64,000 nucleotides of DNA, taken from Polytrichum commune. Lineage: Eukaryota > Streptophyta > Polytrichopsida > Polytrichales > Polytrichaceae. The DNA is taken from positions 38,802,429-38,866,428 of the forward strand of contig OX485804.1 in the NCBI GenBank assembly GCA_950295325.1, read 5' to 3'. The notes under the pieces are model-generated. The model saw only the letters and a program-made list of their open reading frames with translations, ran no database searches and was not told the DNA's origin. This document shows, in pieces, positions 8,464 to 63,089 of the stretch; position 1 is the stretch's first letter, and each line of letters starts with the position of its first letter. The translations under genes were made by a program, and so were the position numbers.

Positions 8464-9439
8464 CACTACAAGGAAAACACGAAAAAATGACTGGGGTTTA
8501 TGACTAATATAGGTAAGAAAGTGCACTGATGACTAACATCATTTTTAGTCCTCAACATGGTCATGTCGGACCAGTCGCTCCAGACAAAATGACTACTGTC
8601 ATATCGGACAATTTTCGTTCCCCATGGCGAGTTTCCCATGGGGTTTTGGGATCTCATTTTGGGTTGCCCCTCAACCTTTCGTCATTTTCACTATTTTTAG
8701 TCATACCTATGTGACTCTATTTAGTCATGTATAGTTATGTCTTTTGATTAGAATCAGTCATAACTATGTGATTAAACTTAGTCATGTTATGTATTTACAT
8801 GACTACATGATCTTCACTATGTGTGGTCATACGACAAATATGTTTATCCATTAACGACTATTATTAGTCATATTGTGACTAACAATAATCATATGATACA
8901 TGATTGCTTGCTAAAATGAATCATCTTTGGCGCTTTACATTTTGAGGGGTTAATCATTATTTTTGGTCCAGTAATAAGCGTTTCAATTTTGATGACTAAA
9001 TGTAGTCATTTGATATGACTATAAATAATATTATTAAAAAAACATCGAATGTTATATTCATGATAATTACATTATTTGTATGAATAAAATAACTAAACAT
9101 AGTCATCACCTTCAAACATTTTACTCTATGATATGACTAAATTTAGTCATCATATTTAAACAACTTACAGCAAAATATGACTAAGTATAGTTATCATATT
9201 CAAACAGTGGACTGCAATAGATGAATTTGTATAGTCAATATATTGAAATATTTTACTACAATAGATGACAAATCATAGTCAATATCTTCAAATATTTTAC
9301 TATAAGACATTTCACATGCACATATCATTCACTAAGCAAATTCAAACTACTAATTCCAGATGATATACACTACTACCAATCATCTACCCAAAATATGTTT
9401 CCTACATTTATCTATGACTCTACATATGCACAGCGTAAA

Positions 9440-9740
9440 AACTCAGTGGACTACATTATAAAATTGCTTACAATTTCTCCAATCTTCTTGATGGAAAGGT
9501 TATCCAATTCTACATTTTTTAAGAGGTTATACTCATTGTCGTGGCTCCTTTGCACCTCCAGAGACACACAACCTTCATATGCTATAACTTCATGCAATAT
9601 ACCCTCCTTTACATTTGTCGTTTTTCGGTGTGCAACCACATTTTTTTCCTTTCATTTTTCATAATCCATCACTTCCATAACATCCCATGTTGAAAATGTG
9701 AAGGGCGGTGGGACCTCTTTATCCGCTACAACTACCTATA
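9440..9740 (-). pseudogene. Coding-like fragment inside the CACTA element
   Basis: The minus strand reads as a coherent hydrophilic peptide for roughly 90 codons with one internal stop. It contains the runs FTFSTWDVMEVMDYE and KEGILHEVIAYEGCVSLEVQ. The composition looks like real protein, unlike the random frames around it. It could be the remains of the element's accessory ORF or a captured host gene piece. I do not recognise the family. Confidence 0.35.
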
Positions 9741-10211
9741 GTTCCAATGATTACGTATGTCAAAACCTCACGGAAAAGCCATGAAAGTAAACATACAATT
9801 TGATGAAATATTAAATGGTCACACAGTTTGGCATATTTATCTTTACATTTTTTATGGCTTCTTTTTATTGTTTTTTCCCTCCTTTATTTTTCTTACCATT
9901 TTTATCCGTTACATTGTTTGTACTTTATCCTTTATGTTTTGTAATTTTTGTCTTTGGGCTCCTCTGCTCTCATGCAGTTTCCATGTTTATCATTGGTTTT
10001 CTGTGATAATTTATGTTGATTTGGAGTTTCTCCACCTCCGTGACTCATTTTCTCATTTTCCAAATTTTTGGACGGGCCTCATGCTATAATATTAAATCAA
10101 CATTTTTTCCTCCTCGTTGCATTTGTTCGCTTTTTGCTCATTTCTTTTCTTAGGTTTTTTTTTTCCTTTTACAATGATTGTGTAGTGGTAGTTATAATTT
10201 AAAATGGGCAA

Positions 10212-45900: not shown

Positions 45901-48010
45901 TCATGCATTTCCTTTGAGGCTTACCCAGCATTGAATATGATAGGAGGCAGTAGATATATAAAGAAAAGCTCTTCGTTGAATTGGAGAACATGTGAGCTTG
46001 CTCCCTTGCTAGTGACCAACACCACAATCCCTGTACAAAAGCCCTGCACAATTGATCAAGAATCGTGCACATCAGTACATTTTAAACCTCTAAATTCACA
46101 CATTATGTCACATTGATTCAACTGCAACAAACTAAACAGAGAATCCATGCTTACTGAACATAGAGTTGCAATATTAATCTTTTAGTTCCGTCTAGAGTTA
46201 GATGCAAGACCTAAAAGGTTGAGTTGCAAACTGAGTCACTGTTGAATGAATCGCTTAGCTAAATTTTGAGTTAGCACTGTAAAGATGTAAATCCCGAAGG
46301 GTATGTATCAACACTAACTCAACATTAAACGTTGGTCACTTGCTTTTTGACTCGTACTACTTTTAGGTTCCCATTACTAGCCCAAAAGACAAGGCAACCT
46401 TCCCGCTGCAGATCCCAGATTGAAGCCGGAATCACTAACCCAAACTGCCAGACCTCATGGAAAGGAAACAGGACAGCCTCAAGAGGTAGAAATGGGCAGC
46501 CAAAGTTCTCAGGAATCTGCTGATGGGCGCTTTATGTTGAACACACTACTTTAGGTTCCCATCACTAGCGCAAAAGACAGGTCAGTCTTCCTGTTTCAGA
46601 ATCCCAGATTGAAGCCCAATTTCGTTCCCAAAATTATAACCCAAAATGCCAAGACCTCATGGACATGAAAGAGGAGAGCTTCAAAAGATAGAAATGGGCG
46701 CTAAATCTCTCAGGAATCTGCTGATGGAAGCCTTATGTTGAACACACTACTTTTAGGTTCCCATTACTAACCCAAAAGACAGGGCAGTCTCCCTGCTTCA
46801 AAACTCCAGATAAAAGACTTCAGCTTCCTATAATCACTACCCAATATGCCAAAATACCGTGGGTAGGAAATAGGACAGCCTCAAAAGTTAGAAATGGGCA
46901 GACATATTTTCCAGGAATCAGCTGTTGGGCGTGATATGTTAAACATACTACTATAGGCTCCCATTACTGGAATTTCTGTGACATCGGCTGTTAGAAGTGC
47001 TTTGTTGAACATATTACTCTTTAGGTTCCCATTACTAGCCCAAAAGAAAGGGCAGTCTACCTGCTTCAGAGTTCCAGATTGACGCACACTTTAGCTCCAC
47101 GGAATCGCTATCTCAAAATGCCAAGACCTCATGGACAGGAAACAGGACAGCCTCAAAAGGTAGAGATGGGCAGCCAAATTTCTCCGGAATCTCACTAACC
47201 ATAATGCTAAGACCTCATGGATAGGAAACAGGATAGCCTCAAAAGTAGAAATGAGCACCGAGTTTCTCAGGAATCTGCTGACGGGTGCCTAATGTTGAAT
47301 AAACTGCTGTTAAGTTCCCATTACCAAGCCCAAAAACTTCCTCATTCAGAGTCCCAAATTGAGGCACACTTGAGCTTCCAAGAATCACTACATACCCAAA
47401 ATGCCAAGACCTCATGGATGTCATAGGAAACTTACACTGTAAACTTACTGCAATGTCTGGGTTGTGATTAATTCATTCACCCATATTTATCCCCAAATGC
47501 CAAGACCTCATGTACAGGAAACAGAATAGCCTCAAAAAGCAGAATGAGCGCCAAATTTCTCAGTAATCTGCTAATGGGCGCCTTATGATGAACACACTGC
47601 TTCTTAGTTTCCTATTCCTAGCCCAAAAGACAGGGCAGTGTTCCTGCTTCAGAATCTCAGACTGAAGCATACTTTGGCTGCCCGGAATCACTAACCCAAA
47701 ATGCCAAGACCTCATGGACCCCATAGAAAACTTATACTGTAAGCTAAATGCAATTTCTGGGTTGTAATTAATTCCCTGTCTCATATTGTTCCCCAATATG
47801 CCAGAATTAATAACTTACGAGGATGATTGCCGTGATGGACTCGCTGAGCCAGCGATTCTCTTCGAGCATGTGGCCCAGCACAATGCAGGCGCAGAGCAAG
47901 GTGACGAACAAGGAGATGGCCACCACCACCATGTGGTCACTTGTGCCGCCCAGCCCTACTTTCACCATGACGGTGTGCAGTGTGCCCACCGGCAGGCCTT
48001 TCATCACCAT
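39952..48010 (-). CDS. NHX: Vacuolar Na+(K+)/H+ antiporter, NHX class I, 14 coding exons
   Basis: The product exchanges cytosolic Na+ or K+ for vacuolar H+ across the tonoplast (CPA1 family), supporting salt tolerance, K+ storage and vacuolar pH. Coding exons, 5' to 3': 48010-47819, 46043-45925, 45622-45525, 45233-45174, 44912-44866, 44542-44348, 43972-43926, 43771-43705, 43535-43435, 43192-43091, 42834-42696, 42042-41980, 41789-41700, 40308-39952. All introns are GT-AG, phases join, and the sum is 1677 nt or 558 residues (family usually 535-550). Landmarks are LLCACIVLGHMLEENRW, the amiloride-binding LFFIYLLPP, FGEGVVNDATS with the transport Asn-Asp pair, FFCGIVMSHYTWHN, GRAAFVFPLS, and the C-terminal FDDAYMRPVFGGRGFVPYV. 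Exon 1 is GC-rich. The start at 48010 is chosen because it follows a possible acceptor; ATG 48004 is possible. LCYLSGIL replaces the usual LFDLSGIL. The reading frame is intact. Confidence 0.95.
40435..41275. repeat. Tandem repeat, three units of ~272-290 bp, in NHX intron 13
   Basis: Units start at 40435, 40710 and 40982, each beginning CTTCATC and continuing through 'tgtaatccc', 'gagggcc' and 'acctcccttt' to 'gtgcaccrgaaaat' and 'agcacta/gtt'. The units differ by many substitutions, so the array is old. Non-coding. Confidence 0.85.
42130..42536 (+). mobile_element. Diverged Tourist-like MITE in NHX intron 11
   Basis: It shares with the main family the order 'cccatgaccatt', 'ttggtggaaaa', 'cacaaaaccgggagaccatg', 'ctcacaatttcatggtcac' and a right terminus GTGTAAAGTGGCTC followed by TTA. 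The left terminus is degraded. It lies wholly within the intron and does not affect the splice sites. Confidence 0.7.
46340..47800. repeat. Irregular tandem array filling NHX intron 1
   Basis: At least six units of about 190-300 bp. Landmarks recur in order: 'taggttcccattactagccc' (46363, 46552, 46753, 47020, with variants near 47310 and 47604), 'atgccaagacctcatgga', 'aggacagcctcaaaa', 'aaatttctcaggaatctgct'. A higher-order duplication of about 300 bp links 47393-47465 with 47695-47775. Units carry internal deletions and partial duplications. Non-coding; splice sites lie outside the array. Confidence 0.85.
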
Positions 48011-54890: not shown

Positions 54891-55589
54891 CTAATCAAAT
54901 TATTTTTTAAATCTGTACAAACATGTGTTTTTGAACGATTGACCCATAGTTCGTGAAGCAAATCCTAGATCTAGGAAACATAATTTGTGAAAGAACAACC
55001 ACATTGGAAGTTATGTGTTGCCGAAACTACCTCATCAAAAATTGTGAACCTTATCCGAAAGACAATATTCGTCATAAAAATTAATCCAAATTGGCACAAC
55101 CACCCCAATACAAACATATCCACACCACCAGACCCCTCTATCTCGTACGATCCATGGATAGAGGACCTAGCTTGGAAAGCAAAAACAACTAAAAATGAAG
55201 CCCGGAAAATTACAACAGAATATTTCATTAAACAAATTAAAAAAACCATATCAAAGTACCAACAATTTTATGACAAAAGTCCCAAGAAAATCAATAGGAG
55301 AGTCTTCAAAAGCAATGATATCCCCCTCGACTATCTCATAGATAGATTTGACAACATTCTTACAAACCCAGAAGACATCGCACAAAAAACTTATGCCCAA
55401 CAATCAATCAACAATAGACCAACTGTCCCAACATGCTACTACCAACCTGATCACCTACAACATTGCACACGTGGAGTCAAACAATACCCATAACACGATC
55501 TGGACGGATACACTCTTGAAAGAGAGGCAAACCACTAACCCCCCTTTATACCCACCTCTATCAAGAAACATACAACATATGCCTTAAAC

Positions 55590-57108
55590 ACTTCGTCAAT
55601 GGGAAAACCCCTAGACCAAACAAAATCCCCAACGCCATACTAAAAAATATGCCGCCATGATTTCACATACTCTCCTTACTATTCTTCAGGCAATGTTATA
55701 AACAAAAATAAATTCTTGATTCCTGGAAAATAAGCCTTATAATACTACTATACAAAAAATGAACCCATATCACCTTACCAACCATAGACTAATAGCACTC
55801 GCTAACACAATATACAAATTATTAACAAACACACTTACAAGTATACTCTCTACATATGGAGAAAGACACCAAATCCTACATGACATTTAAGAGGGCTTTT
55901 GAGTTGAGAAATGCACCTCCCAACAACTACAAATCCTCATCTCGGCATTAGAAGATGCTAGGCTCACAAACCAAGATATCTATGTACTATATATCAACTT
56001 CAAAAATGCCTTCAGTTCAATAAACCATGCCAGAATCCTTGCCATTATGAAAAACCTTGGTTATCCACAAAATGTTGTAGCATTGGTAGGCAATATTTAC
56101 TCACAATCCACCACCACATTTATTGGCGAACACTTTGACAAAACGCAACCACTCCCTACACAAAGATGAACTATACATGAAGATGCACTAAGCCCATATC
56201 TCTTTATTATTTTTCATGAACCACTTCTCAGATGGCTACAACAAGGAAACAACGGATACTCCTTCAAACCCTTTAATACAAAATTAAACTTTGTAGCCTA
56301 CGTAGATGACCTAGTAGCCATAGCCAACATGACATCCCTTCAATTCCATCCCAACAAACTCAACAAATATTGTGCATGAGTAGGAATGGACCTTGGCATC
56401 CCAAAATGTGCAATCACGGGTTGCTCAAACAAATCGAAACTAAACTCACAAGCCTTTAAAACACAGTTAAAGAACATAAATGTAAATTTTAGAAATCAAT
56501 TTATACTTATACTAAGCCAACACGAACCATATGTCTACTTTAGAATCAACATAGTCCCGTCATTACAATGGAAAACACAAACATACGGAGCAATGACCAA
56601 ATTAATAAAACAATGCAAACTACTAGTCACATACCCAACCACCACGGAGCAAAAAATACAAATGGTGGACACAGTCATACGAGTTGGCATCACCTATAGT
56701 TTCTATGATGTCCCATACTCACTCCTTGCCATCAAGAAGCTTGATAGAAAAGTAATTGCCCTACACAAAACTATATGTGGTCTCATGAAGTATGTGTCAA
56801 ATGCGGTTACACAATTATCACACGACATGTTCGGCACAAAAGTTTTTTCACTAAAAAACTCATACATCACATGTATTGGCAAACAACTCATTAACGCCCT
56901 CAATGACAAAGGTAAACTCGGAAGAATATACAACAGATCGATAAGACACATACTCGTTAAACATGAAGGGACACAAAACCTAACACGCATATCACACCAT
57001 GATTGCATAAGGTCACCAATCACACGAACTCTATTTTTACTTAAAACAACTAGTGGTACACACCTCATAAGCACAGTCGAAGAATTTCCCCTCTTCCCAC
57101 ACCATTAG
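55590..57108 (+). pseudogene. LINE reverse transcriptase domain, inactivated
   Basis: The reverse transcriptase copies element RNA into DNA at the target site. Visible motifs in one frame are NGKTPRPNKIPNAIL (fingers), WKISLIILLYKK (after a stop), YINFKNAFSSIN (motif A, where the catalytic Asp is Asn, codon 55996-55998), ALSPYLFIIF-x-EPLLRWL (motif B), FVAYVDDLVAIA (motif C; YVDD at 56299-56310 is intact), then CAITGCSNKSKL (thumb). Stops lie at 55888, 55900, 56167 and 56377. The tail from 56386 stays open for 240 codons to 57108. Neither RT catalysis nor a full protein is possible from this copy. Confidence 0.88.
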
Positions 57109-58765
57109 AAACACAGTGGATGCGTCAAGCAAATAATATACCAACACTAACCCCCACTATATCCCTAAAATATCTACATAAATTAATGCTACATAATATA
57201 ACCAAACTCAAACACATAACACACCCCAATGACACACATCTAATGACTAATGATGAATTCAAACATTACTATGATACACCCACTAAAATATTTAAAACCG
57301 CTTTAGATCACGCCAAAACATTCTTTTGTGAAACCTCATGCCACAACCAATGCCCAGACATATGCTTAACATGCTGCATCAAACACCTTAAAAAATGAAA
57401 ATAAAACACAAAACCATAACATACCTACGAGAGCACGAGAGCATGCGAACACAACGCACATCCCCCCCCCCACCACCACCACCACTAGAATACCCAAAAC
57501 CACCCCTACACATCCTTAAAAGCCACACACAATTCCCAATACATTTCATAATAAACGACCGCCCTGGCACATACAAAGATAAAAACAAATCACAAAAGCA
57601 TATACGGCCTACATATGTCAATGGACACTACCAAACGAAATACTTTATAACAAATGGCTCCCCCAAAAAGAATCGTTCCCATGGAACAACCAAAACTCCA
57701 TAAATCACAACGTTATATTCTTAACGCAATACTATACTCGCAAACAACACCAACACTTCACTAGCATCCTACAATCAAACTTCAACCAAGAACGAATGAG
57801 ACACTCCCGATACATCCCCCCGCCACAAACCATACCCTTATGTCATATCAATATTAATGAATGTAACCCAAAGAACAACATCGCCCACACACAAAGCACC
57901 ATTCAAAGCCAACATGGTATATCACACATCTACGACAACAGTGGCTGCCACTTAATCATCATCTTTGAACAAATATTACAATGGCTATGGGAACGATACC
58001 AAGTAGCATTAAACAAACCACAAGATCTAGAACCCCCCATGCAAACATTTGAAACAGAAGTCGCATGGTTATACCAAAGATACAAATACAAAATACCCAA
58101 AAATGACCCCCTTAAACTTTCACAATACACACTCCCAACAACATCCTTGAGCACCTCATTGATTCCTTCCACATCACGCACTCATACTTTTCGTCGCGAG
58201 TATCATGCCCTACCACACTCCGACAATTTTCCTCCTCATTTCCCCGGGATAGAGTATTCGGATCAATAGGAATAACATTCCAATACAAATGGAAAGGAAA
58301 CGGATATGCCCACCCACATACAGAAAACGAAGCCCAACAAACCCTCCATTGGGCAAGACTTGCAACCAAAAATAACCCAGACATAGCTACAATACTCGTA
58401 ACAATAGACCCAAACCGGTACCACAACCTTAACCCCCACGATGCCCCTTCCCAAATTCACACGTCATCACACACTTCAAGGTTGATACCATTATATACGA
58501 CGAGCCAACAATACCACCAGAATTAAGAATTGAACCAAGAATAGAAAGCCGTGCTATCCATATATTATGCATACACCACAATACCACACCCATTGGATCT
58601 AGGGAATATACCCACCAAATGGACGTCATTGGGAACATCCTAGAAATACATGCAATGTTTACCAAAATTACACCACTTACATCAATACACACCCCAATGA
58701 ATTGTAGTACAAAATGATCTCAACTTACATACCCTCCCCACCCACCTATCACCCAAACCAATGGT

Positions 58766-59738
58766 GTCGCGCACCTCTCCATGAGGAGTGCCCGAAACAC
58801 CATGGGCACAAGGGGGACCCCGGAGTGACACCCGGGACTTGTGGCGCCGTTGGTGAGAGGGCCCAAGTGATCCTAGTGTGGGTGAGGGCCCCGGGCGTTG
58901 GGAACGCCTCCCACCCACGGAGACTAGGAGGCATGAGGGTAAGGCCATGAGCTATGCGTAGCTCATGGCGTGGTGATTCTAGAATGCTCAAGACCACCTC
59001 AAGCGGAGGTGTGAGCTAGAAGTTATGGCCATTTGAGTGGGGCGTTGTCCCGGGACAGCGCCCTGGTACAGCAGTGCCTGGGAGTGATTCCCGGGACTGC
59101 CAAGGTTCAAACAGGCATAACTTCCTCAAGACTTGCCCGAATGGGGCAAGTGAGGAGTCCATCGGCATCTACGTGAAGTGTAGATGAAGATGGAGTGGTT
59201 GGTTGTTGGAATCAGACATCATAAAAGGAAGTTATGATGGTCTGAAGCTGGTGGGGGGGTTCTAGGCCCAGCAGCTAAGGGAAAATGTCTACTTGGCCCC
59301 AACTCTTGGTAGAGAGACAAGAGGTCTCTTGACGGTGGGGTAGGGGCACCGCGTAGAGTCCTAGAGGCTTATATGGGTGAGGTGGTGTGGCCTCACCCAC
59401 CCGAGGCCGAACGGCACGGCCTCCATGGGCTTTGGCCCATTGTGAGGCCATAGTTGCCTAGTATGGTTCGGGTTGTTGTAGTGTTGCTCCGGCAACGCGA
59501 TGATCAACATGGGATTGGACTTCCATGGATGGAAGTCCACATCCAAGAAATGGGTTACCGATTAAGGGGTGAGTCCCGAAAGTAAAGTAGGAGGGTTGGT
59601 TCCCTCCTATGAACTATTTGGTCCGGGGTAAGAGGAGCTAACCATTAGCATGGCAGAATGCGAAGGGTTAGCGCTCGTAACCTTTGCTAGAAAATGAAAA
59701 TTGGCAAGATTGCTAAGGGAGCTAGCAAGGGTTGCGAC
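58766..59738. mobile_element. Hairpin-array insert of unknown class inside the LINE
   Basis: A 973-bp GC-rich block interrupts the LINE between the middle region and RNase H. It is bounded by 'caatggt' (58759-58765) and 'aaatggt' (59739-59745), probably a 7-bp target duplication with one change, and its ends share a short inverted GTCGC. Its body is a chain of at least 13 non-overlapping hairpins with 5-13-bp stems and short loops. Examples: 58872-58928, 58944-58969 (stem GCCATGAGCTA, loop TGCG), 58986-59016, 59041-59062 (contains palindrome TGTCCCGGGACA), 59123-59156, 59166-59186, 59212-59245, 59374-59399, 59418-59449, 59483-59496, 59516-59539, 59588-59609, 59710-59728. No protein-like frame is seen. 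I know of no element class with this architecture. Confidence 0.8.
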
Positions 59739-59796
59739 AAATGGTATCCCACTAATCACCAACCTAGACAGATGTTTACCCCTCAATTACCAACCG

Positions 59797-60430
59797 CAAT
59801 TTTGTTATTACACAAATGGGTCGTTCATACCACCTAAAGAAACAACTCATGGACACTGGAAACAAGAAAAGGCATGATATGGCATATACAACCCTTTTGA
59901 AAATCTCAAGATTGCAGAAAGGCTACCAAGGCTTCAAAACATACTACGTGCAAAAATGATGGCTATACACCACACCCTCCATCTCCTCACTACCACATAT
60001 CGTGATGAACCAACACATATCTTCACAAACTGCCTCAATGTCCTATACCTACTAAATACACAAATCAAACACCCAACCCTGCATAACAACCACCCATATA
60101 AGAATATACTCGAATCTACAATTAAAATGCTACAATCATGCACACAAACCACCACACTTCATAAAGTCAAAGCCCACACGAACACAAATGGAAATGAACA
60201 AGCAGACACACTAGCCAAATTGGGTTGCGAACTAGATCATAGAGATGCCGTAGCAACATATGAACATGCACACCGTACACCATACTACCTCCAAAAAGAC
60301 TGGTGGCACTCAATGCAAGAAACACCAGACAAAGGCCCCATTCGGCACCTTGAAAAATACGTCCCTAAAGATGATAAAAGGCATAACCTAGAAATTATAG
60401 CAAATCAAGCACATCAATTACATAAATGAC
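59797..60430 (+). pseudogene. LINE RNase H domain, catalytic residues lost
   Basis: RNase H removes template RNA during element replication. The fold is clear: YYTNGSF, LRAKMMAIHHTL, HIFTNCLNVLYLL, then KVKAHTNTNGNEQADTLAKLG. Of the usual D-E-D-D set, the first Asp is Asn (59815-59817), the Glu is Lys (59953-59955), the second Asp is Asn (60028-60030), and only the last Asp (60205-60207) remains. The sequence beyond continues as QKDWWHSMQETPDKGPIRHL, the linker to the Cys/His region. Catalytically dead. Confidence 0.88.
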
Positions 60431-60539
60431 TCAACAACAAAGATATCGACAAAGTATTATCAAATGACTTTTGGAAAAACCCTACCAATATTGATAAAGA
60501 AAAAGAATGTGCCTAATAAAATTCCAAACTAGACAGTAA

Positions 60540-60930
60540 ATGGGACATGCTCGGAAACAACTCTTCTTTGGTAGAGAAGCATACCCATCAAATACATGCC
60601 CTATTTGTAACTCATCATATGCAGATACATGGTTACATATACTCCTTAAATGCAAACAACAACACATCCATGCGCTGCTAACAAAAAGGCATAACAAAGC
60701 GGTATGGGAAATACGTAAACTTATAATTTCAAATAAAATATCAAGACATTACACACTTATAAGCGCAGGGACATATAATGGATTCCCCCAAGAAAACACA
60801 ATACCAACATGGCTACTGCCGTGCACGTGCTATGCCCAAAGGTGTAATTGCAACGCTAGGTTTAAACCTGACAAATTATGCATCATAGGTCACCCATATG
60901 ATGATCCACCACCAGAAGCCCCTACACCAT
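60540..60930 (+). pseudogene. LINE C-terminal Cys/His region
   Basis: A 130-codon open frame with GHARKQLFFGRE, then CPICNSSYADTWLHILLKC (C-x2-C-x9-H-x4-C) and WLLPCTCYAQRCNCNARFKP (a second Cys cluster). The first cluster fits the zf-RVT type of nucleic-acid-binding knuckle found at the C-terminus of many LINE ORF2 proteins. The second cluster is also present in the minus-strand copy at 12.1 kb, so it is a conserved feature of this LINE lineage. Confidence 0.8.
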
Positions 60931-61095
60931 AAATCACCATACAATTTATAGAATTTACATATTGTAACGACGTATAAACTGCAAAAACTCGAGAGAGAAA
61001 AACCACAAAATATCAACCGCTCATCAACAATGTCATAGCGAGAGGATGGAATGTAACACCACTTATGGTATTAGCCGCAGGTGCAAGAGCCACAA

Positions 61096-61420
61096 GAAGA
61101 AGAAACGTTGACCATGTGATCAGCGTGATTGGAATGCCCGTTCGACCCACCCTTGGCATTAAACCCTCATGGCATAATACCAGTGGTGTAGGACTACTAA
61201 CCCCTCTCGGGGTGGGCACTATAATGACACACTATACTAGTTCCTAACTAGCCACTAGTGCCTTGAGGATACCGGACATGAAATCCCCCCAAAGGGCTTT
61301 GAGGTACCCATACAACAAGGTCCAAGGACCCCCCACCATAGTTGGGTGGACTAAGGTGGTGAGCACCCACAACCTCCTCATTGGGAGCCATGAGCCCTAA
61401 CCACCAAGCCAAGCCCGTGA
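61096..61420 (-). mobile_element. SINE-A, full-length, nested in the LINE
   Basis: A 325-bp insert flanked by a perfect 14-bp target duplication TGCAAGAGCCACAA (61082-61095 and 61421-61434). On the minus strand it begins TCACGGGCTTGGCTTGGTGG, with an A-box-like TGGCTTGGTGG and a B-box-like GGTTGTGGGTGCTC about 40 nt downstream, and ends in TTCTTCTTC, the short form of the (CTT)n tail seen at 4798-4839. tRNA-type Pol III boxes, long duplication and simple tail identify a SINE. Joining the flanks restores the LINE reading GARAT-T-x-IP. The 5' half is rich in short palindromes such as GGTCCAAGGACC. Confidence 0.9.
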
Positions 61421-61649
61421 TGCAAGAGCCACAACTTGCATCCCATTGATGAAAGAACTAGAAACAAAACATAAACTCCCTACCACGAAAATAAAATATA
61501 CATTTTAAAAAATCAACATAATTGCCATACAATTTATGCACACTCAATATTAACTCATAAAAGACGACTAGAAAATAAACAATCTATCACAAACCTACAT
61601 GACCTAGCATAACTAAAACACTCACAAACCCGATATACCCCCCCCCCAT

Positions 61650-61858
61650 AGTAGTGCCACGATAACTACCACTATTTGAAGGCACATGTTACTGGCTACC
61701 GGTAAAGACTATTAGTCACTAATGTAGTGTCTACTCCTTGCATAGGGTGAAGTAGTTTTACATCTAATGTCATTGCCCTAGGGTGTGGCCAAGGATGTTT
61801 TACAAACATACACTCTATTCACTCCGGCCTCTTTTGAGACTGGAGTTCTTCTTCTTCT
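61650..61858 (+). mobile_element. Probable SINE-C copy with hairpin and (CTT)n tail
   Basis: The right end 'cactctattcactccggcct', followed by a hairpin-forming segment (ACTCCGGCCTC ... GAGACTGGAGT) and CTTCTTCTTCTT, matches the 3' module of the insert at 10212-10293. The left boundary and target duplication were not identified. Confidence 0.5.
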
Positions 61859-63089
61859 TGTAAATCATGCAATAACGTCATTTTAAAGTTGAGAATTGGA
61901 TTGCAGTTGCAAGTGCGATAACAGATGAAGGTGAAGACTTTCATTTTCTTTAGGTGTTCCTATTTATCCTCCCATTTGAGTTGACTACAATAGATATTGT
62001 ATTTAGTGTCACCAATTCTAATTGTCTTACTCAATACTAATTGTAAACGGCATGTGTAGTGTCACCAACACTAAATGTAAACCTAACATTATTTGTCAGT
62101 CCTTGTAGGAAAATCAGGACATTATAGATTAAAAAATGGTGTAATTGTTGTCGCTTACTAAGTGACTTTTCATCCAAATTGCAATCATTCATGACAATAT
62201 AACATCACATAAATGCAAGGATGCAAAACATACAAAATTTTGTTTCAACAATTAACATTTGGATGAATTGAAAGTACGTGGGGATGACAATATTTGTATA
62301 CTTATTCATAGAAATGTCACTAACAAAGTCACCCCGGTGACATAAAATAACACATGACACTAAATACAATATTTAGTGAAGTGAGCTTATAGTGGGTCCT
62401 ACATTTTGAGCACATAATAGTAAACTCTCATTATAAACACATGTCTTTATGATGTTCATCCTTAACTTTAAACCTTGTGATATAGGTACCACTCAAATAT
62501 GAGGTGTCCAATTAAGAAGAATGATCACGTAAAACCCACATACCTTATACAAATTCAAAAATGTTGGGTGATAGAACAATAGCCAACATTTATTGGAATT
62601 ACTGATAATCTATGGAGAAATATCGTATAAAAGATAATACAATGACAATCAATGACACTAATTCTTGTTCCAACCATACATATCTTATCTACACTTCATC
62701 TTTTGGAAATCTATATTGGAAGGCAATACGGTCCTCAAACCATATTTTTAAGAAATTTTGATATGCAATGAACCCCCTAAGGATTAAATGGTTAAATATT
62801 CTTACAAAACTTTGAAAATGCCTACATGGAGGCCATGGCTAGAATAGAAAGTTTGAGATCCATCGAATTGATGCCCATAGTCAACAAGAGATCAAGGGTT
62901 AATTCCAAGAGCATGAAGCCCTACTCGAAGGCTTGTACTCGAAGGCAATTGGAGCATTATTTATTTAGTTTTTTCTTTTTCTTTTTTCCTATTTTTTGGC
63001 ACAAGCAATTGGAGCATTTCAAAACATCAAGTTGTACCAAGTGGCGATGGATAATTGCATGAGGCATTCTTTGTGGCAAGTAACATCTA
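61859..63089. other. No gene seen; traces of the gtgacact repeat
   Basis: AT-rich DNA with phrases 'tttagtgtcacc' and 'gtagtgtcaccaacac' related to the repeat around 20280-20710 and 27640, and a fragment of the 26190 family on the minus strand (62480-62560). No coding region is supported. Confidence 0.5.

What the first reader, a model, noticed from the sequence alone, without database searches (positions are those of the whole stretch)
58766..59738. A 973-bp insert built almost entirely of consecutive hairpins
The block sits cleanly inside a LINE, between near-identical 7-bp flanks, and at least 13 short inverted repeats follow one another with little spacer. Stems reach 11-13 bp and several have 2-5-nt loops. 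Base composition is far more GC-rich than the surroundings. Ordinary MITEs fold as one hairpin, SINEs have a single tRNA or 5S head, and Helitrons have one 3' hairpin. A head-to-tail chain of hairpins suggests either a structured RNA element or a DNA element that amplifies by hairpin processing. The class is unknown to me.
Basis: partly seen in the sequence, partly recalled or inferred. Interest (0 to 1): 0.88.

Follow-up and report, generated by a model that had tools for sequence, protein, structure and literature searches.

The report
Solo retrotransposon LTR made of hairpins
The insert is the leftover end repeat (solo LTR) of a very abundant, recently active Ty3-type retrotransposon family; its unusually dense chain of hairpins is real and partly preserved in evolution, but the element class itself is a known one.

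Summary
The block is a solo LTR, 58765-59739 (975 bp), with TGTCGC...GCGACA ends and a 5-bp target duplication (AATGG), in a LINE whose empty sites exist elsewhere. The genome holds 2,801 exact 24-nt LTR starts. Ten same-strand pairs, 5.8-7.1 kb start to start, have a primer-site motif after the 5' LTR and a purine-rich tract before the 3' LTR; 6 of the 10 pairs are identical. The interior read is a broken Ty3-type pol, so the family looks non-autonomous.

The hairpins are real: 14 perfect stems of at least 6 bp against 2.35 in shuffles (0 of 300 reach it). Stem positions change more slowly than unpaired ones, and some changes are compensatory, though modestly and not in every control. That sense RNA is what is selected is only suggested. 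Two other Ty3-type families here also have hairpin-dense LTRs.

Palindrome-rich LTRs are known from Copia Sireviruses; a Ty3 hairpin-chain LTR is a variant, not a new class.

The parts
58765..59739 (+). Solo LTR, 975 bp, TGTCGC...GCGACA; sense strand of the element is the window + strand
   Evidence: same-ended copies occur as LTR pairs with primer-site motif and purine-rich tract
58760..58764 (.). Target-site duplication AATGG, left
   Evidence: at two empty LINE loci (L044/L053 and L046/L055) the flanks meet as one 5-bp copy would predict
59740..59744 (.). Target-site duplication AATGG, right
54984..60932 (+). Decayed LINE that hosts the insertion (approximate extent; RT piece 55903-56166, RNase H piece 59878-60426)
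59369..59374 (+). TTATAT, TATA-like motif, same in the four copies (A and B); the start of the R region was not determined
   Evidence: reading it as a promoter motif is inference
58788..58809 (.). Hairpin GTGCCC/GGGCAC
   Evidence: fully paired (G-U allowed) in 41 of 53 A rows, arms identical in B
58894..58908 (.). Hairpin GGCGTT/AACGCC; loop GGG in A, TAG in B
   Evidence: 50 of 53 A rows
58944..58969 (.). Hairpin GCCATGAGCTA/TAGCTCATGGC, 11 bp; one pair G-C in A, A-T in B, G.T in some other copies
   Evidence: 47 of 53 A rows
58995..59011 (.). Hairpin CACCTC/GAGGTG
   Evidence: 52 of 53 A rows
59131..59151 (.). Hairpin ACTTGCCC/GGGCAAGT, 8 bp
   Evidence: 38 of 53 A rows; inner pairs C-G to T-A in some copies
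59166..59186 (.). Hairpin CATCTAC/GTAGATG
   Evidence: 50 of 53 A rows
59217..59239 (.). Hairpin CATCATAA/TTATGATG
   Evidence: full 8 bp in only 5 of 53 A rows
59313..59329 (.). Hairpin AGAGAC/GTCTCT, nearly private to this copy
   Evidence: 2 of 53 A rows
59374..59399 (.). Hairpin TGGGTGAGG/CCTCACCCA, subfamily A only
   Evidence: 53 of 53 A rows; 3' arm gapped in B
59403..59423 (.). Hairpin GAGGCCG/CGGCCTC, subfamily A only
   Evidence: 30 of 53 A rows; gapped in B
59425..59440 (.). Hairpin ATGGGC/GCCCAT, subfamily A only
   Evidence: 49 of 53 A rows; gapped in B
59516..59539 (.). Hairpin TGGACTTCCA/TGGAAGTCCA, 10 bp, arms identical in A majority and B
   Evidence: 47 of 53 A rows
59588..59609 (.). 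Hairpin TAGGAGGG/CCCTCCTA, broken in B
   Evidence: 46 of 53 A rows
59710..59728 (.). Hairpin TTGCTA/TAGCAA
   Evidence: 27 of 53 A rows

Best explanation
Shown: the block is a solo LTR of a large, recently mobile Ty3/gypsy-type family whose interior, where read, is broken. Inferred: a full element was reverse-transcribed with proteins supplied in trans, its cDNA was integrated into a LINE with a 5-bp stagger, and recombination between its two LTRs later removed the interior and left one LTR. Shown: the LTR is a chain of short inverted repeats far denser than chance, and with folds taken from A copies stem positions differ less between subfamilies A and B than unpaired positions do. Inferred, about 50%: the hairpins matter in the element's sense RNA (5' R-U5 and 3' U3-R), for instance for packaging, dimerisation or strand transfer, so the replicating lineages keep them while dead copies decay. 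The confidence given is for the solo-LTR identity, not for the RNA role.
For: Solo LTR: TG...CA ends and TSD. In one search ten same-strand pairs have outer flanks that repeat 5 bp (two of the ten share the same flank letters, so they may be one insertion duplicated), and nine other single LTRs have a perfect 5-bp repeat, as here; a tenth single (L006) repeats 4 of 5. GGTGAG precedes 3' LTRs and a TGGT motif follows 5' LTRs two bases on, read further as GGTGGGGGTGAG and TGGTATCAGAGC in the loci and counted. Internal RT_RNaseH_2 and Integrase_H2C2 pieces lie in Ty3 order. Empty LINE sites. Six of 10 LTR pairs have no difference over 973-975 bases, the others 1, 3, 3 and 10. Structure: 14 hairpins against 2.35. 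A/B differences 14.6% paired against 24.7% unpaired with the fold of this copy, p 2e-4. Within A, singletons are about equal in stems and outside, but variants shared by 3 or more copies are fewer in stems: odds ratios below 1 in 15 of 15 single-copy-fold tests, p<0.05 in 7 (the tests share data). Double changes that keep pairing: 87 cells against 39 in column shuffles, 0 of 500. Clade-level G.T against A.C in stems 20:14 (p 0.39), 37:17 (p 0.009) and 25:8 (p 0.005) with three reference folds; rare variants even.
Against: The folding excess is as strong with G-U pairs forbidden and on the antisense strand, as palindromic DNA would give. The strand test against unpaired columns was significant (p<0.05) in 5 of 18 runs and flat for one reference row. 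With the fold of B the A/B contrast was weaker (16.5% against 21.3%, p 0.08), and a circular-shift control with that fold was not significant (199 of 933 shifts as low). Only 5 of 301 pairs show a pairing double change between A and B (null mean 1.7, 49 of 2000 as high). The number of further pair types did not exceed shuffles (153 against 152.7, 252 of 500; 172 against 171.3), and shuffles do not remove relatedness. The consensus fold over A, B and C copies is much weaker than single folds (-194 kcal/mol, covariation term -6.6; single A copy -467). Three hairpins at 59374-59440 exist only in A. No RNA was measured.
Confidence: 0.96

Rival explanations
1. The hairpins are made and kept perfect by a copying mechanism (template switching of reverse transcriptase, or repair, at quasi-palindromes), without selection for structure. 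One arm is used as template for the other.
For: Strand-symmetric folding excess. The loop of the 10-bp hairpin at LTR 752-775 appears inverted (TGGA to TCCA) in three copies, L065, L072 and L121 (alignment; L065 and L121 also by script), and CC stands for GG in 2 of the first 100 listed of 2,546 genome matches, one of the two being L065 itself. Hairpins are gained or lost whole between A and B.
Against: The script found an inverted loop in 2 of 82 rows and at one hairpin only; for the other 17 hairpins none, but one has a self-complementary loop and several have loops private to the window copy, so the test was weak there. Two of the 100 listed matches carry CG, a possible single-step intermediate. 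In family D arms change together while at least one loop stays. Copying alone does not predict slower change in stems.
Confidence: 0.25
2. The palindromes act as DNA: dimeric protein-binding boxes or CpG-rich promoter boxes, as proposed for the palindromic repeated motifs of Sirevirus LTRs.
For: Inverted repeats without strand bias in folding. GC-rich block. PMC2829016 (passages read) describes palindromic boxes upstream of the TATA box in Sireviruses.
Against: The hairpins lie on both sides of the TATA-like motif and do not show one repeated core. Clade-level changes lean to G.T.
Confidence: 0.15
3. The hairpins are mainly a substrate for host silencing (miRNA-like processing to small RNAs) and carry no benefit to the element.
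For: PMC10760457 (passages read) links such structures in maize genes and transposable elements to small RNAs and methylation.
Against: A pure liability should be lost by active lineages; A has identical LTR pairs and B many near-identical copies, and both keep the hairpins. No small-RNA data here.
Confidence: 0.1
4. A DNA element or structured-RNA element of unknown class that amplifies by hairpin processing.
For: Density of hairpins.
Against: LTR ends, 5-bp TSD, LTR pairs, primer-site motif, purine-rich tract and Ty3-type pol pieces between pairs.
Confidence: 0.02

Closest known systems
Ty3/gypsy (Metaviridae) LTR retrotransposons
   Same: 5-bp TSD, TG...CA LTRs, primer-site motif, purine-rich tract, RNase H before integrase; internal integrase pieces 33-42% identical to those of families D and E, the latter with a chromodomain match below its curated cut-off
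   Different: Reading frames broken in the copies read; LTR packed with hairpins
Sirevirus (Ty1/copia) palindrome-rich LTRs
   Same: LTR carries many palindromes (PMC2829016, PMC10760457, PMC5311732: passages read)
   Different: This family is Ty3-type; its hairpins differ from each other and do not repeat one core; [quoted passage not shown]
LARD-type non-autonomous LTR elements (recalled)
   Same: Large, abundant, no working pol
   Different: LARDs, as recalled, have LTRs of several kb and a non-coding interior; here the LTR is about 1 kb and the interior is a decayed pol
MITEs, foldback elements, Helitrons, SINEs (recalled)
   Same: Short mobile insert
   Different: None has LTR pairs with primer site and purine tract between them

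Membership tests
LTR retrotransposon, Ty3/gypsy type | Direct LTR pairs flanking an interior, TG...CA ends | tested here: met
   ten same-strand pairs, 5.8-7.1 kb start to start
LTR retrotransposon, Ty3/gypsy type | Short target duplication of constant length | tested here: met
   5 bp at ten pairs and nine singles; one single 4 of 5
LTR retrotransposon, Ty3/gypsy type | tRNA primer binding site after 5' LTR and purine tract before 3' LTR | tested here: met
   for the motifs; complementarity to initiator Met tRNA is recalled, not tested
LTR retrotransposon, Ty3/gypsy type | Domain order RNase H then integrase | tested here: met
   RNase H piece at L041 151-474, integrase zinc-binding piece at 1554-1820
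Solo LTR | One LTR, no interior, own target duplication | tested here: met
   middle interior pieces L041 and L042 have no match in the window
Sirevirus | Copia-type pol order | tested here: not met
   Ty3-type
Sirevirus | CGG-CCG palindromic repeated motif | not tested
   feature taken from PMC2829016 (passages)
Autonomous element | Long intact gag-pol frame | tested here: not met
   the 150 scored integrase-piece matches (of 2,252 first-look candidates) have open frames of 120-258 aa, 3 with a stop inside; frames short in L005, L008, L041, L042. Unscored copies were not seen
MITE or foldback DNA transposon | Terminal inverted repeats and no LTR pairs | tested here: not met
   copies occur as direct LTR pairs; perfect inverted ends only 6 bp

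The most novel reading that the evidence does not exclude
In this genome several Ty3-type retrotransposon lineages, A/B/C and the D and E families whose LTRs show no similarity to it, have by convergence or old inheritance LTRs that are chains of short hairpins kept by compensatory change as folded sense RNA. That would make a structured-LTR strategy parallel to the palindromic LTRs of Copia Sireviruses.
Probability: 0.35. Interest if true: 0.6.

Novelty: new variant of a known kind. Interest (0 to 1): 0.35.

Why it matters
It turns a claimed unknown class into a solo LTR, and gives a large natural set (thousands of copies, several families) in which the role of LTR hairpins can be tested by comparing replicating lineages with dead copies. 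If the sense-RNA reading holds, hairpin-rich LTRs are not special to Copia Sireviruses.

Tried and rejected
Rfam search of 57000-62000 at E up to 1 gave no match. The first alignment (A1) mixed strands and was set aside. A strand-symmetric count of G.T against A.C inside single copies had too few cases. The RNAalifold-based stem/loop test (OR 0.38, p 3e-4) is circular because the structure was derived from the same rows; the single-copy-fold version is the one used. In one search, copies not covering nearly the whole LTR were dropped and identical rows merged (70 to 61: 53 A with the window copy, and 8 B). Alignment A3 holds 32 chosen rows: 13 of the A rows, 2 of the B copies and 17 of the 21 C-type copies fetched; L108, L111, L113 and L125, which matched B over only part of its length, were left out. 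C-type copies are a mixed set, 77-88% identical to B.

Other LTRs as a control: 20 regions of about 600 nt upstream of the same primer-site motif (the ones after TACA) showed that hairpin density is not unique to this family: 14 of 20 had z of -3 or less. They are not independent: 18 fall into three similarity groups of 3, 3 and 12; L089 and L094 include some A-type flank; L098 is a relative of A and B. Of 35 window tiles of 600 nt in the same script, two had z of -3 or less, one of them over the LTR.

Papers: passages only of PMC10760457, PMC3601003, PMC2829016, PMC5311732, PMC5445492 and PMC11381356; search listings otherwise. Bousios et al. 2016 on Sirevirus palindromes is not held and is known here only from how other papers cite it. 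That I found no paper describing hairpin-chain Ty3 LTRs rests only on the searches.

Full report
WHAT IT IS. The block at 58765-59739 starts TGTCGC and ends GCGACA and is flanked by AATGG on both sides. A search of the window's own genome (407.8 Mb, 64 contigs, unnamed) listed 44 matches after scoring 40 of 4,597 first-look candidates; apart from the window itself, the full-length ones lie at 94-96% identity. Many come as two copies on the same strand about 6 kb apart. The flanks show why: the 5' copy is followed, two bases on, by TGGT, the 3' copy is preceded by GGTGAG, seen at greater length as TGGTATCAGAGC and GGTGGGGGTGAG in the loci, and the outer flanks repeat 5 bp. I count ten such pairs, 5.8-7.1 kb start to start; two of them (L028/L040 and L013/L019) show the same flank letters and may be one insertion duplicated. 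Nine further single copies have a perfect 5-bp repeat on both sides and a tenth (L006) repeats 4 of 5: the situation in the window. Exact genome counts are 2,801 for the first 24 bases of the LTR, 841 for the purine-tract junction and 862 for the primer-site junction. By difference roughly 1,100 LTR starts belong to neither junction, so solo LTRs are probably common; this is rough, since only exact matches count and subfamilies A and B share the start.

THE SITE. The LINE flanks match other LINE copies without the insert. At two loci (L044/L053 on contig C5, L046/L055 on C3) the alignment coordinates of the two flanks meet exactly as one copy of the 5-bp target predicts. The LINE itself is decayed; its RNase H piece passes the Pfam cut-off, its RT piece does not.

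THE FAMILY. Between LTR pairs lie pieces matching RT_RNaseH_2 and, after it, Integrase_H2C2, the Ty3 order. Integrase pieces are 33-42% identical to those of two other families, D and E, in the same genome (the 93-99% hits in L130 are to an A-type element nested there). D carries zinc knuckle, protease, RT, RNase H and integrase matches and E gag, protease, RT and integrase matches; E also has a sub-threshold chromodomain match. The 150 scored relatives of a 95-aa integrase piece, of 2,252 candidates, have open frames of 120-258 aa, so the family looks non-autonomous, though unscored copies were not seen. Of 10 LTR pairs compared, six have no difference and the others 1, 3, 3 and 10: mobilisation was recent and presumably in trans (inference). 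The window copy is older: its nearest relative among the 45 other rows is 96.4% identical.

ARE THE HAIRPINS REAL? Yes. Stems of at least 6 bp: 14 against 2.35 in shuffles; at least 8 bp: 6 against 0.16; 0 of 300 shuffles reached either. A second subfamily, B (about 81% identical), has 10 against 2.04. The excess is the same on both strands and without G-U pairs.

ARE THEY KEPT? Evidence for: A/B differences are 14.6% at paired and 24.7% at unpaired positions with the fold of the window copy (p 2e-4), 14.9% and 23.9% with another A copy (p 8e-4), and 16.5% and 21.3% with the fold of B (p 0.08), spans of 60 bases. Among 53 distinct A copies, singletons, which are mostly changes after insertion (inference), are equally frequent in stems and outside (0.158 per column both, window fold, span 60), while variants shared by three or more copies are rarer in stems (0.073 against 0.140, p 0.017); 15 of 15 combinations of reference copy and folding span gave odds ratios below 1, seven with p below 0.05. 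On 32 chosen copies of the A, B and C lineages, the window's fold has 87 cells with pair-keeping double changes against 39 in column shuffles (0 of 500) and 18-42 in slid versions; 27 pairs have such changes against 19.6 (6 of 500) and 12-21 slid. The fold of B gives 92 cells against 41 and 29 pairs against 21.5. Evidence against, or limits: further pair types do not exceed shuffles (153 against 152.7; 172 against 171.3); a circular-shift control with the B fold was not significant; 5 of 301 pairs show pairing double changes between A and B (null mean 1.7, 49 of 2000 as high); the consensus fold of the 32 copies has only 204 pairs, -194 kcal/mol and a covariation term of -6.6, with 23 pairs showing double changes; shuffles do not remove relatedness.

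WHICH MOLECULE? If the sense RNA is what folds, lineage changes should leave G.U more than A.C in stems. Clade-level states lean that way (20:14, 37:17, 25:8; p 0.39, 0.009, 0.005) while rare ones are even (82:81, 70:74, 86:94). With unpaired columns as control, the contrast is significant in 5 of 18 runs and absent for one reference. I take this as suggestive only.

IS THE FAMILY SPECIAL? Not entirely. Of 20 stretches upstream of the same primer-site motif in other elements, 14 fold with z of -3 or less, and three (L093, L095, L102) show nothing; the 20 are not independent. Groups D and E match this LTR nowhere except in stretches of A-type flank. Family D (nine copies aligned) keeps hairpins while their arms change: with four reference rows, pair-keeping double changes were 53, 57, 59 and 82 against shuffle means of 37, 39, 43 and 61, above every one of 500 shuffles each time; relatedness is again not removed. 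In family E the LTR repeats a hairpin with loops agac, agtc or tagacc and arms of 5 to 13 bp; 6, 6 and 1 perfect units were found in its three copies. One element of D (L129) and two of E (L131, L132) gave Ty3-type matches; L129 and L131 hold nested A-type LTRs.

COMPARISON. Palindrome-rich LTRs are known from Copia Sireviruses (PMC2829016, PMC5311732 and PMC10760457, passages; Bousios 2016 not held). [quoted passage not shown] PMC3601003 (passages) links conservation in long retroviral R regions to stem-loops. PMC11381356 (passages) reports short palindromes near the 5' end of yeast Ty3 RNA and one that drives dimerisation. So the ingredients are known; a Ty3 LTR that is one long chain of hairpins is a variant.

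VERDICT. Solo LTR of a probably non-autonomous Ty3-type family: near certain. Hairpins real: certain. Hairpins selected in the sense RNA: about even odds.

Noticed in passing
L041:316-1217: The broken pol of family A contains a tandem array of about 3.9 copies of a 229-bp unit from the RT/RNase H region.
   Followed up: partly
L030 (C3:50817254-50819184): An A-type LTR inserted into another A-type LTR, with a 5-bp TTAGC duplication.
   Followed up: partly
L129:2255-3226 and L131:3925-4896: A-type LTRs nested inside elements of families D and E.
   Followed up: no
L065, L072, L121 at the hairpin matching window 59516-59539: The 4-nt loop is inverted (TGGA to TCCA) in three copies of two subfamilies, a possible trace of hairpin-mediated copying.
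   Followed up: partly
window 59374-59440: Three hairpins just downstream of the TATA-like motif exist only in subfamily A; B has another hairpin there.
   Followed up: partly
window 46430-47803: Two long tandem arrays with periods of 202 and 293 bp and units that look related.
   Followed up: no
window 8776-9750: Of 65 window tiles, the only other one with 6 perfect stems of at least 7 bp besides the tile over the LTR; it overlaps 44-bp tandem repeats at 9092-9268.
   Followed up: no
L088, L090, L099: Family E LTR: AT-rich array of hairpins with mostly agac loops and arms that differ together between units.
   Followed up: partly
L058, L077 (LTR positions near 790): Two A copies carry a short extra stretch that looks like a tandem duplication of the neighbouring GGTTACCGATT...AAGGGG sequence.
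   Followed up: no
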